A DNA stretch of 64,000 nucleotides from Opisthocomus hoazin (Eukaryota; Chordata; Aves; Opisthocomiformes; Opisthocomidae), in NCBI RefSeq assembly GCF_030867145.1, contig NC_134441.1, positions 8,974,992 to 9,038,991 of the forward strand. Direction: 5' to 3'. Every line of letters begins with the position of its first letter. Within the stretch, counting starts at the first letter, position 1. A program made the position numbers and the translations under genes. The notes below the pieces were generated by a model. It was not told the DNA's origin, did not search any database, and worked only from the letters and a program-made list of their open reading frames with translations. Of this stretch, positions 23,172 through 63,768 are shown piece by piece.

Positions 23172-52059
<28,888 letters not shown>

Positions 52060-54130: not shown

Positions 54131-54184
54131 GGCCGTTACTGGGGGCAGGGTGGCCGTTACTGGGAGTAGGGTGGCCGTTACCGG
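54131..54184 (+). promoter_or_regulatory. Three MYB-like sites at 21-bp spacing, proximal promoter of the ADAM32-like gene
   Basis: CCGTTA (TAACGG on the other strand, a match to the MYB consensus YAACKG) occurs at 54133-54138, 54154-54159 and 54175-54180, each inside a 21-bp repeat of the form GTGGCCGTTACTGGGAGTAGG. The last copy ends 13 bp before the start codon at 54193. MYB binding is inferred from the motif only. Confidence 0.45.
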
Positions 54185-54192
54185 CTGCGGAG

Positions 54193-57192
54193 ATGGCGCT
54201 GGGCCGGGCGCTGCTGCCGTTGCTGCTGCTGCGTGAGTCTGGGCCGGGACCCCCTCACCCCCGCGCCCCTGCCCTGGGGCTGCCCCGCAGCACCGGCTCG
54301 GGCCGGGCTCAGCACCATGCGGGTCTCTCTCCCTCCCAGGCTGGCAGGCCCTGTCCCAGCTCACGGTCCCGGTGCGGCTGCCCGCCGGCGCGACAGCAGA
54401 GCCGGTACCTGGCGCCGGGGGTCTGCGGGCAGGGGGAGAGGTGTGGGCAGCAGGGCCCCGGCTGCGCGAGGAACTGCCGAGCTCCCGGCCCTGCAGCGCT
54501 TGTGTCTGGAGCTGCTGTTCCTGACTCTCCCTCTTTCTGCTCTCGGCTGCCCCAGGACACCGTGTCCTACGTCCTCAGCATCGCGGGGAGGCCACACACC
54601 CTCCGCCTGCGCCAGCAGTGAGTTGGGCCTGGCCGGCCCTGGCCGACGGTGGCGCGGGGACGGTGCTGGGCTGGGAGCCGGTGCTGGGCTGCGGGGCCAT
54701 CCTCGGCTGCGGGTGGTGGCTGGCGCGGCTCCTTGGGCTCTGCCCAGCCTCCGCGGATGCTGGGATCAGCGCGTCCCAGAGCCGTGGCGTGTGCTGCGTG
54801 CCGAAGGGTGGCCGGGGGCTGGAGGAGGCTTTGGGGGACGCTGGTGCCTGTGAGTCCTGAGGGCAGCGGGTGCGGCATCTGCCGGGGCAGCGGGGCTGGC
54901 TGCGGCACCTCGAATAAGCTCGAGAAACGGGGTAAGAGATACCATTTCTTTGAAGCGCGTCACTGTACACCTTTCTTTTGCAGTGTCTTTTTATCAGATG
55001 ATTTCACCGTTTACCTGTCTAATGAGATGGGATCCTCGCGCTCTGGTTCGCCCCGTGTCAAGGTAACCTCGGGCTGCGTTGGGGTTCCTGTCGGTGTGCG
55101 TCGCAGCGAGCCACTGCTGTCCCGTCCGGGCTGGGGAGCTGCCTTCCGGCCACGGAAGGGCTCCTTCCCCACTGTCGTGATGCAGGCAGGCTGCCACTAC
55201 CGGGGCTACGTCGAGGGCTTCCCCGGCTCGGCAGTGACCCTCAGCACCTGCACGGGCCTCAGGTACCCCACGGGCCCCTCCCCGCGCCGCCGTGCCCGTC
55301 GGTGCCCGGCAGCCTGGCCCGCGGGCGGCTGGGGCTGGGGCAGCCTCCGCGGCGGCAGATGGCGGTGGCCGATGGCCGGTGCTGTCCCCGCGGCAGGGGC
55401 CTGCTGCAGTTTGAGAACGTCAGCTACAGGATCGAGCCCCTGGGCTATGCTCCTGCCTTCGAGCACGTTGTGTACCGAGTGAGCGGCGAGGAGGCGGCGG
55501 GGTCCCTCTTGGCTGATGGCCCCCCCGAGAGCGGGCCAGGCGCGCCGGCAGCGGAGGAGATGGCGGACGCGGCGCAGGGAGACCAAGTGAGCGGTGCCTG
55601 TTCTCGCGGCGGTGCCGATGTCCCCGTCACGCGAGGAGGGCGCGATCCCGCGGGAAGCTTTGTCCGGCATCGTCCGGACGGACAGAGATGGGGGAAGGGG
55701 GACGTTGAGGAGTGCCAGTGCTTGCGATGGGGCGTCGCGTGGCTCGTTACTCACCTCGTGCCTAATGAGAGGCGTCACCAGCGAACGGCTACAAGATTTA
55801 ATGATGGATTTGTGAAAGCGGGGGTGTTTCTTCCTCCCGTGTGCAGGCGGTTGGCAGTGCTGTGCTGGCTGCTTCGGCCACGGGCCCGTGTGAGTGTCCC
55901 AAGGCCCCAGTGTTGGTCGCAGCCCAGAGGCGATGTTGTCAGCAGGAGGCTGCAGCCTTCTCCTAGGTGTTAATACACAGCTTTTGCTTTCTGCCCTGAA
56001 AACAGCATCAGCAGATGACGATGCCTTGCAGAGGGTTTAGTGACTCGAGAAGTCAGCATTTCTTACACCTCATGACTGAATTAGTGAAATGAATTTTTAA
56101 CAGTGAAGATTTTTTTTTCTAGTCAGTGTCCAGCTACCAGCGAGAGATGGGGAGAGATGGGGAGCAGTGTTCCTCAGCAGGGCTGTCACAGTGAGGAACG
56201 TGTTGGCGGGCAGGTGTGCAACAGCAACAAGAACTGCCACTGCGCCCCGGGCTGGAGCCCCCCGCGGTGCGAGGCGCGGGGCTCCGCCGTGGGCGGCAGC
56301 ATCGACAGCGCGCTGGGCCCCGGTGAGTGCCGCCGCCGCGGCTGCTGCCCCGCGGCCGTACCAGCGGCAGCTCCCACGGCCCCGCCGGCGGCCGCGCTGG
56401 GCTCGCAGCGGAGCGGACGGCCCGTGGCGTCGCCTGGCTCATGCCCGGAGCTGGGCTTTTGGTTCTCTCCCTAGATCACAATGCCAAAGGCTCTGCCCTG
56501 GCCGTGCTGAAGAACTGGCAGCTGCTGAGCTTCGGCATCCTCCTCCTCACCCTGGTCTGTGGCACCATCGTGACGATGAAGTGGAGACGGCTGAGAAGGT
56601 TCTGCGCAAGGAGGGGATCGCGGGCGGATGGGTAAGTTGGTGTTGGTTACCGAATGCAAATCCCACGCCCTGCGTGCGGGAGATGGGCAGGGAGCGTGGA
56701 ATTGCTCCAGGAGCTGGCGAGGGGGGTTTACAGCCTGGGCAGGGCAGGGAAAGTGGCACTTGGGAAACAGTAACTGTTTGCTGGTAAACTGGGAACTGTT
56801 TGTTGGTAAACTGGGAACTGTTTGTTGGTCTTCAGGGGAAGAAACTAACAAACAGGCGTCTAAAATACACAAACGTAGGAGAAGCAAAACCAAGGGTGGA
56901 TTTCCTGGCAGCAAGAGCATTGTCTGTGTGCAAGAGCCAGAGGAATTCGGTTTTCCATTTGCTAATTCCCGGGGAAAGCAAACTGTAAAAGGGGAGAAGT
57001 AGGAGTGGGAGAAGCTGCGGGCCCCGCAAGGCTGGAGAGCGGCGGCTGGCGCTGCCCGCGCGGGAGGAGAGCGCGGGGGCAGCGGGGCTGAGGCAGCACT
57101 CCTCGGCGGTGGAGCTGCGCGGGGACCCGGAGGGGAGCGACGGCCGGGACACGGAGCCAGAGCCGGACCTGGAGCCGGACACGGAGCCATAA
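54193..57192 (+). CDS. ADAM32-like gene lacking metalloprotease, disintegrin and cysteine-rich domains
   Basis: Exons read: 54193-54232 (signal peptide), 54340-54404, 54556-54617, 54984-55062, 55186-55262, 55397-55586, 56214-56322, 56475-56631, then either 56836-56848 (early TAA, 263 residues) or 57003-57192 (TAA, 322 residues, acidic end DTEPEPDLEPDTEP). The prodomain is ADAM32-type: DDFTVYLSNE, GCHYRGYVEGFPGSAVTLS, and LLQFENVSYRIEPL, which is close to human ADAM32. Exon lengths 79, 77 and 190 nt equal those of ADAM9 exons 4-6. The 627 bp after 55586 should hold eleven exons (protease to cysteine-rich) but shows none. Next comes half an EGF module (VCNSNKNCHCAPGW, four cysteines), a helix (LLSFGILLLTLVCGTIVTM) and a basic stop-transfer stretch. 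Joining 55586 to 56214 keeps frame. A stronger acceptor at 56123 would instead give a stop after 23 codons. It could be a working trimmed gene, a decaying gene, or an assembly collapse. Confidence 0.7.
56773..56829 (+). repeat. 22-bp tandem repeat, 2.6 copies
   Basis: Units starting at 56773, 56795 and 56817 (partial) read ACTGTTTGTTGGTAAACTGG plus GA, with one base difference in the first. The array lies in the last part of the ADAM32-like gene, just before the acceptor-like TTCAG at 56831-56835. Confidence 0.85.
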
Positions 57193-57232: not shown

Positions 57233-57238
57233 AATAAA
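57233..57238 (+). promoter_or_regulatory. Poly(A) signal of the ADAM32-like gene
   Basis: AATAAA lies 41 bp past the distal stop codon (57190-57192). Its position supports a real transcript end here and sets the 5' limit of the next ADAM relic. Confidence 0.55.
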
Positions 57239-57284: not shown

Positions 57285-57714
57285 GGCCGTTACCGGTGCT
57301 GCGGGCAGTGCTGGGGCTGCTGGCCACACTGGGCTGGCGGCCGGGCAGGGCGGCGACGTGTGCTGTGCCGCAGGTAGGTTGGGGAGCCCAGCCCCACTCC
57401 CGCTCCCACCGGACCCTAATGCCCCTCTCCCCGCGGGCAGCGCGCCCGGACCTGCATCACCCCCATCGAGGGGACCCCCCCCACCATGCGCCGGTGGCAG
57501 CAGTAAGTGGGGGGCGGCGGGCAGCACAGCCCCTCGGCAGACCCCAGGGCTGTGCGGGGAGGGCCACTGCCTCGTGCGGTGACCACCGCGTGTGGCCGCG
57601 GTGCCAACGGCAAGGGTGGCATCGCCGTTCTGTGCATAGTTTGTGCCAGAGGCTGTCTGGTTCTACACCGATGGCCGAGGGGGGCTGGCAGAGGCCGAGC
57701 TGGCAGAGGTGGAG
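57285..57714 (+). pseudogene. Relic of another ADAM prodomain (tandem copy)
   Basis: GGCCGTTACCGG at 57285-57296 repeats the block at 54173-54184 just before the start of the preceding ADAM. The aligned start is GTG at 57308 (VLGLLATLGW against MALGRALLPLLLLRW), running to a donor at 57373. Exon 57441-57502 is 62 nt with the same end phase as exon 3 of the neighbour; RARTCITPIEGTPPTMRRWQQ's pattern I-x-G-x-P-x-T-x-R-x-x-Q-Q matches SIAGRPHTLRLRQQ. Exon 57640-57714 (FVPEAVWFYTDGRGG...AEVE) matches FLSDDFTVYLSNE...PRVK but is 75 instead of 79 nt, which breaks the frame against the previous exon. No ATG is available in the signal-peptide frame. Later ADAM exons are not recognised. It is most likely a pseudogene of the testis-type ADAM cluster. 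Confidence 0.6.

Positions 57715-59714: not shown

Positions 59715-63768
<4,054 letters not shown>

What the first reader, a model, noticed from the sequence alone, without database searches (positions are those of the whole stretch)
54193..57192. A trimmed ADAM: prodomain joined in phase to half an EGF, membrane helix and tail, with no protease or disintegrin
The prodomain exons are well conserved, with exon lengths 79/77/190 identical to ADAM9 exons 4-6. In the 627 bp between exon 6 (ends 55586, phase 0) and the EGF exon (starts 56214, phase 0) there is no trace of the eleven exons that encode about 450 residues in ADAM9. Because both borders are phase 0, direct joining gives an open protein of 263 or 322 residues: a membrane-anchored ADAM prodomain. 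The EGF keeps four of the usual six cysteines. Human ADAM32 already lacks the catalytic histidines, so selection for the protease block was probably weak before the loss.
Basis: partly seen in the sequence, partly recalled or inferred. Interest (0 to 1): 0.82.

Follow-up and report, generated by a model that had tools for sequence, protein, structure and literature searches.

The report
Bird ADAM32-type gene missing its protease
In this bird genome the sperm-type ADAM gene next to ADAM9 has lost the whole stretch that codes for the protease, disintegrin and cysteine-rich parts, yet what remains still reads cleanly as a membrane-anchored leader domain; it may be a working leftover or a gene that died recently.

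Summary
At 54193-56631 eight exons with GT-AG borders join into one open frame: signal peptide, ADAM prodomain (Pfam 1.4e-10), part of an EGF, membrane helix. The block matching ADAM9 e7-e17 (11 exons, 452 residues) is absent from the locus. Searches of the own assembly (1.48 Gb, 415 contigs) show no second copy and no clear ADAM32/18-type protease. The prodomain groups with ADAM32/18/2, not ADAM9; position favours ADAM32, sequence does not separate the three.

Corrections: the 322-residue form has no credible splice acceptor; 263 residues fits. The acceptor before the EGF exon is the weakest of 24 scored; a stronger in-phase site lies 87 nt upstream. A third ADAM relic (one recognisable exon) follows at 57.4 kb. 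A rooster sperm proteome lists an ADAM32-like protein whose database model is 82 kDa, so the trimming is probably not shared by all birds.

Most likely: a genomic deletion inside a dispensable sperm ADAM. Whether the remnant works is open: frame, codon composition and conserved residues favour function or very recent death; the weak acceptor speaks against. New variant of a known kind.

The parts
54193..54232 (+). E1: start codon and first part of signal peptide
   Evidence: donor GTGAGT; frame open
54340..54404 (+). E2: end of signal peptide, start of prodomain
   Evidence: acceptor score 9.7
54556..54617 (+). E3: prodomain, 62 nt (ADAM9 e3 has 65)
   Evidence: profile i-E 0.2
54984..55062 (+). 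E4: prodomain, 79 nt
   Evidence: profile i-E 0.16
55186..55262 (+). E5: prodomain, 77 nt (CHYRGYVEG...STCTGLR)
   Evidence: profile i-E 2.8e-9
55397..55586 (+). E6: end of prodomain and acidic/Pro-rich linker, 190 nt, no cysteine (no cysteine switch)
   Evidence: profile i-E 8.8e-10
55587..56213 (+). Intron 6, 627 nt, phase 0/0, where ADAM9 has exons e7-e17 (452 residues)
   Evidence: no similarity to the rest of the window below E 0.4
56127..56213 (+). Possible 5' extension of E7 (29 codons, phase 0, no stop, two Cys) using acceptor TTTTTTTTTCTAGTCAG
   Evidence: score +5.6 against -3.4 for 56214; such a site lies upstream of 255 of 9274 AGs in the window, 37 of 828 in 53.9-60 kb; against: GC3 0.55, not alike e17, lowers the EGF match
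56214..56322 (+). E7: C-terminal part of EGF (four Cys), 109 nt
   Evidence: profile i-E 1.9e-11
56475..56631 (+). E8: membrane helix and basic cytoplasmic start
   Evidence: profile i-E 0.0022
56836..56848 (+). Most credible last coding piece (ends GGRN, stop), giving 263 residues
   Evidence: acceptor +4.5; only this site and 56743 (0.0) score above 0 in 56632-57190
57233..57238 (+). AATAAA, likely poly(A) signal
57441..57502 (+). Exon 3' of a third ADAM copy, 62 nt, with splice borders
   Evidence: 40 of 62 identical to E3, next best plus-strand window in 64 kb 34; local blastn E 6.5e-6
57640..57714 (+). Possible exon 4' of the third copy, 75 nt; in the frame that resembles exon 4 it would not join exon 3' in phase
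   Evidence: read by eye with borders; NOT found by the profile nor by DNA similarity to E4
34662..49824 (+). Neighbouring ADAM9, exons e3-e19 assembled in one open frame, [12 protein letters not shown] in e11; used as yardstick
   Evidence: further ADAM9 matches at 33.1 and 51-52 kb; exon 1 not located

Best explanation
This is the bird's sperm-type ADAM gene (ADAM32 by position; ADAM32/18/2 group by sequence) after a genomic deletion inside the gene. The deletion removed the exons between two phase-0 introns, so the two ends remain in one frame. If transcribed and spliced, the product is a type I membrane protein of 263 residues (292 if the stronger acceptor at 56127 is used): signal peptide, ADAM prodomain without cysteine switch, furin site or protease, a partial or rebuilt EGF, a membrane helix and a short basic tail. 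Shown: the architecture, the open frame, the absence of the block from the locus, and no clear ADAM32/18-type protease found elsewhere in the assembly. Inferred: deletion of an ancestral full gene; a tethered prodomain that still folds and could act in trans on other ADAMs in the secretory pathway of germ cells, as chaperone or inhibitor. Not shown: transcription, the 55586/56214 junction, selection after the deletion.
For: Open eight-exon frame with all splice dinucleotides; Pep_M12B_propep 1.4e-10; codon periodicity, 0 of 5000; 23 of 25 columns invariant in the five other prodomains kept, in line with the other rows of that test (23 of 24 to 23 of 27); prodomain split from ADAM9 at 98/98. 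Block absent from 53.9-64 kb and from 40 kb starting at window position 63009. Own-genome Reprolysin search: 23 matches, on this contig only ADAM9 and a locus at 5.52 Mb; 22 of the 23 places lie in the 20 sequences (some overlapping) compared, and in all 20 an ADAM9 query scores above ADAM32 and ADAM18, though only 36 to 35 in L013/L040. Control: exon-size pieces of recalled human ADAM32/2/18 score 54-59 bits to the Reprolysin model, so such an exon should have been seen. DNA 55350-56520 has one full copy. ADAM32-like protein in rooster sperm, database model 82 kDa (PMC8063615, table row). Rough neutral half-life of the intact frame 3.2 Myr.
Against: No transcript, no second species, no reads. 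The E7 acceptor is the lowest of 24 scored (-3.4; 31% of 828 AGs do as well). A further ADAM copy beside it is reduced to one recognisable exon, so the cluster is decaying. For ADAM1-3 the disintegrin domain is said to be what sperm-egg binding needs (review passage), and it is gone here. The propeptide search of the genome missed the window's own multi-exon ADAM9 and this gene, so that search says little. The neutral half-life rests on recalled rates; the ADAM32 position argument rests on recalled human gene order.
Confidence: 0.45

Rival explanations
1. Recent pseudogene: the same deletion, but the remnant is no longer spliced or translated and its open frame is inherited from the full-length gene.
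For: Weak E7 acceptor; a neighbouring ADAM copy reduced to one recognisable exon; [quoted passage not shown] a frame can stay intact for some 3 Myr by chance.
Against: An old pseudogene is unlikely to keep the frame (P intact 0.12 at 10 Myr, 0.014 at 20 Myr under the assumed rates); no stop, frameshift or lost splice dinucleotide in E1-E8; a better in-phase acceptor exists at 56127.
Confidence: 0.42
2. Assembly collapse or a haplotype-specific deletion: the protease exons exist in the animal but not in this sequence.
For: GC-rich bird regions are hard to assemble (general knowledge); no reads could be inspected.
Against: No N in the window or in the 22 loci counted; contig of 9.52 Mb; no clear orphan ADAM32/18-type protease on other contigs, no unassigned Disintegrin or ADAM_CR match examined pointed to one (those places were not all compared); one full DNA copy.
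Confidence: 0.08
3. Chimera between tandem paralogs: the head of one sperm ADAM joined to the EGF and tail of another by a deletion that ran from gene to gene.
For: Head scores highest with ADAM32 (284) and ADAM18 (280), tail with human ADAM9 (166), window ADAM9 (155), then ADAM18 (119); the locus holds a further ADAM relic.
Against: Tail tree is unresolved (60/50) with long branches, so no switch of affinity is shown.
Confidence: 0.12

Closest known systems
ADAM32 (with ADAM18 and ADAM2, testis pseudopeptidase ADAMs)
   Same: Prodomain sequence; position after ADAM9 (human order recalled); no cysteine switch (human rows recalled)
   Different: Lacks pseudopeptidase, disintegrin and cysteine-rich domains and two EGF cysteines
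ADAM9 (intact neighbour in the window)
   Same: Exon plan outside the missing block; E4-E6 lengths 79/77/190
   Different: ADAM9 keeps [12 protein letters not shown] and all domains; its prodomain forms a separate branch (98/98)
Domain-losing snake venom metalloproteinase genes (PMC4926149, passages seen)
   Same: ADAM relatives that evolve by losing whole domains; a prodomain-only case is recalled from Brust et al. 2013, which was not held and not read
   Different: The losses in the passages seen are of cysteine-rich and disintegrin domains; here the middle, protease included, is lost and the membrane anchor kept
ADAM9/10/17 prodomains as inhibitors (PMC4848645, passage seen; PMC5355436, passage seen)
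   Same: A prodomain acting apart from its own protease
   Different: Those are released or recombinant, not a separate membrane-anchored gene product

Membership tests
ADAM family | Reprolysin-type prodomain | tested here: met
   PF01562 1.4e-10, 42.1 bits over cut-off 23.7
ADAM family | Metalloprotease or pseudoprotease domain | tested here: not met
   Absent from the locus; no clear ADAM32/18-type protease elsewhere
ADAM family | Disintegrin and cysteine-rich domains | tested here: not met
   Absent from the locus; the genome searches list on this contig only ADAM9 and the 5.52-Mb locus
ADAM family | Membrane-proximal EGF and membrane helix | tested here: inconclusive
   E7 and E8 found by family profile; E7 has four Cys and Pfam EGF_2 at 15.8 bits is under the cut-off 22.1, ADAM9's own EGF scores 28.4
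ADAM32 orthologue | Groups with ADAM32 rather than ADAM9 | tested here: met
   98/98 split, but ADAM32/18/2 not resolved from each other; human rows recalled
ADAM32 orthologue | Directly downstream of ADAM9, same strand | tested here: met
   the human gene order itself is recalled
Functional protein-coding gene | Transcribed, spliced, under purifying selection | not testable with these tools
   No RNA and no other bird genomes available here
Pseudogene | Disabling mutation in the remaining exons | tested here: inconclusive
   No stop, frameshift or lost splice dinucleotide in E1-E8; weak E7 acceptor

The most novel reading that the evidence does not exclude
A retained gene for a membrane-tethered ADAM prodomain: a protein made only of the inhibitory and chaperone part of a metalloprotease, anchored by its own helix, with the EGF rebuilt from intron sequence (six cysteines through the acceptor at 56127), regulating other ADAMs in trans in bird germ cells.
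Probability: 0.25. Interest if true: 0.75.

Novelty: new variant of a known kind. Interest (0 to 1): 0.42.

Why it matters
If kept by selection, it would be a natural stand-alone, membrane-anchored ADAM prodomain, which would test whether prodomains have a function apart from their own protease. If not, it documents how a sperm ADAM cluster erodes in one bird lineage while chicken appears to keep a full-size ADAM32-like protein in sperm.

Tried and rejected
The 322-residue tail: acceptor at 57003 scores -14.7; no acceptor leading to stop 57192 scores above 0. Homology of the 87-nt extension to ADAM9 exon e17: not significant, 849 of 4000 random pieces, and 594 of 1500 with two or more Cys, score as high; the extension also lowers the Pfam EGF_2 match, E 3.4 against 0.018. 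Loss of the cysteine switch as a sign of adaptation to trimming: rejected, since the recalled human ADAM32/18/2 lack it too. Chimera of two paralogs: tail tree unresolved. PDB sequence search: no ADAM among 3 hits, best E 0.28. Exon 4 of the third copy: seen by eye only, not borne out by profile or DNA similarity. Nine paper searches showed no description of such a gene in the titles and abstract starts listed; PMC4290089 has no mention of ADAM in its main text.

Full report
What is there. The window has no N. ADAM9 lies upstream on the plus strand: e3-e19 (34662-49824) were assembled in one open frame with [12 protein letters not shown] in e11, with further matches at 33.1 and 51-52 kb; its exon 1 was not located. 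Downstream, 54193-56631 holds eight exons with AG/GT borders and matching phases that join into one open frame of 259 codons plus two bases. Pfam finds the reprolysin propeptide, E 1.4e-10. E4, E5 and E6 have the lengths of ADAM9 e4, e5 and e6 (79/77/190). Between E6 and E7 lie 627 nt, phase 0 on both sides, where ADAM9 has 11 exons for 452 residues.

Is the block gone? For the missing block it gives one minus-strand hit at E 1.7; the reversed control gives 3.9 and 4.7. A search with the window's ADAM9 alone is less sensitive (it finds E5, E6 and E7 below E 0.05, not E3, E4 or E8) and gives 0.94 for the block, 0.82 in the reversed control. The recalled human ADAM9 against the whole window gives no match for the block below E 1 outside ADAM9. 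Four 10-kb loci from window position 63009 to 39 kb past the window's end hold no ADAM exon (best E 1.3).

The own genome. G000 has 1.48 Gb in 415 contigs, the window being C28:8974992-9038991. The searches gave 16 propeptide, 23 Reprolysin, 16 Disintegrin and 14 ADAM_CR matches. As a control, the window's ADAM9 appears in the last three but not in the propeptide list, which also misses the gene in question; that search is blind to prodomains cut into small exons. On C28 the last three list only ADAM9 and a locus at 5.52 Mb. Twenty sequences (19 fetched loci, several overlapping, and the window's ADAM9), holding 22 of the 23 Reprolysin places, were compared with human ADAM9, 32, 2, 18 and the window's ADAM9. 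In all 20 an ADAM9 query scores above ADAM32 and ADAM18, but in L013/L040 only 36 to 35; the C7 gene (L009) fits ADAM2 and ADAM9 alike (324 and 322), but it keeps a zinc motif, HELGHALGMRHD. Sensitivity: exon-size pieces of recalled human ADAM32, ADAM2 and ADAM18 score 54-59 bits to the Reprolysin model, like ADAM9's own exon at 54.7. A search with the trimmed protein finds its own exons and only weaker ADAM relatives. DNA 55350-56520 has one full copy; two short matches (74% and 83%) fall on the EGF exon of other loci. Collapse is thus unlikely, though reads were not available.

Which ADAM? In the prodomain tree the gene sits with human ADAM32, ADAM2 and ADAM18 against both ADAM9s, support 98/98; the three are not separated. 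Pair scores are ADAM32 284, ADAM18 280, ADAM2 268, human ADAM9 244, window ADAM9 230. The EGF-membrane part scores best with ADAM9 (166 human, 155 window), then ADAM18 (119), ADAM32 (110) and ADAM2 (91); its tree is unresolved. Position right after ADAM9 favours ADAM32; the human order is recalled. PF05154 (TM2, 6.1e-18) supports TM2D2 upstream, and an IDO-like exon near 63.65 kb (PF01231, E 0.001, under the cut-off) supports IDO downstream.

Splicing. With simple recalled frequency tables the E7 acceptor at 56214 scores -3.4, the lowest of 24 (17 of ADAM9, 7 here; ADAM9's lowest is -0.9); 31% of 828 AGs in 53.9-60 kb on both strands do as well. At 56127 lies a site of +5.6 with a T-run and a branch-like TTTTTAAC, in phase and without stops. 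Such a site lies upstream of 255 of 9274 AGs in the window, 37 of 828 in the GC-rich part, and 0 of 23 other exons. A second AG four bases before it (56123, +3.6) is out of phase. The extension would add 29 residues with two cysteines, making six. Against it: its GC3 is 0.55 while E7's is 1.0, it does not resemble exon e17 (849 of 4000), and it does not improve the EGF match. The last exon is most credibly at 56836 (+4.5), giving 263 residues; the site for 322 residues scores -14.7.

Alive or dead? For: codon-position GC contrast 0.303, reached by 0 of 5000 sets of blocks from 57.8-63.4 kb; 23 of 25 columns that are invariant in five other prodomains are kept, the other rows keeping 23 of 24 to 23 of 27. 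Both could be inherited from before the deletion. A rough neutral model with recalled rates gives the frame a half-life of 3.2 Myr, P intact 0.12 after 10 Myr and 0.014 after 20 Myr. So the gene is either kept or dead only recently. Against: the acceptor, and a third ADAM copy at 57.4 kb of which only exon 3 is recognisable (62 nt, 40 of 62 identical to E3, next best plus-strand window 34; local E 6.5e-6). A possible exon 4 of 75 nt at 57640-57714 would not join it in phase, but I saw it by eye only; neither the profile nor DNA similarity to E4 picks it out.

Literature, passages only. A rooster sperm proteome lists ADAM32-like XP_024998701.1, molecular weight 82 kDa, among proteins that differ between the F and SF animals (PMC8063615). 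The weight belongs to the database model and its chicken locus was not checked, but it suggests that the trimming is not shared by all birds. [quoted passage not shown] One study used reptile Adam32 and avian Adam18 sequences as outgroups (PMC9275260), so an ADAM18-type orthologue stays possible. PMC3434135, a survey of duplication and loss in fertilisation genes, showed nothing on this gene in the passages seen.

Judgement. The anatomy is firm; a deletion in an already dispensable sperm ADAM is the simplest origin. I put a still expressed trimmed gene and a recent pseudogene at about equal odds. The proposed role, a tethered prodomain acting in trans, is inference from what other prodomains do.

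Noticed in passing
window 57441-57502 (and perhaps 57640-57714): A third ADAM copy directly after the trimmed gene, recognisable by exon 3 alone (same length and splice borders); a possible exon 4 is seen by eye only.
   Followed up: yes
window 63502-63646: A (CTCTC)n array of 29 units lies directly before an IDO-like exon and may serve as its pyrimidine tract.
   Followed up: no
L025 (G000:C7 about 34.759 Mb): An ADAM with 585 codons open in one stretch, HELGHALGMRHD present, whose frame changes in the cysteine-rich part; its prodomain is 42% identical to the trimmed gene's.
   Followed up: partly
G000:C13 27.351-27.358 Mb (L010, L011): Two tandem ADAM genes with long open stretches (657 and 438 codons), apparently intron-poor.
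   Followed up: no
window 26913-27776: A 287-codon open frame that recurs in similar form beside the C7 ADAM; looks like the end of a CR1-type retroelement (recalled); Pfam gives no match.
   Followed up: no
window 54131-54181 and 57285-57304: A 21-nt repeat (GGCCGTTACTGGGAGCAGGGT, 2.4 units) precedes the start codon of the trimmed gene; a similar GGCCGTTACCGG lies before the third copy's exon 3.
   Followed up: partly
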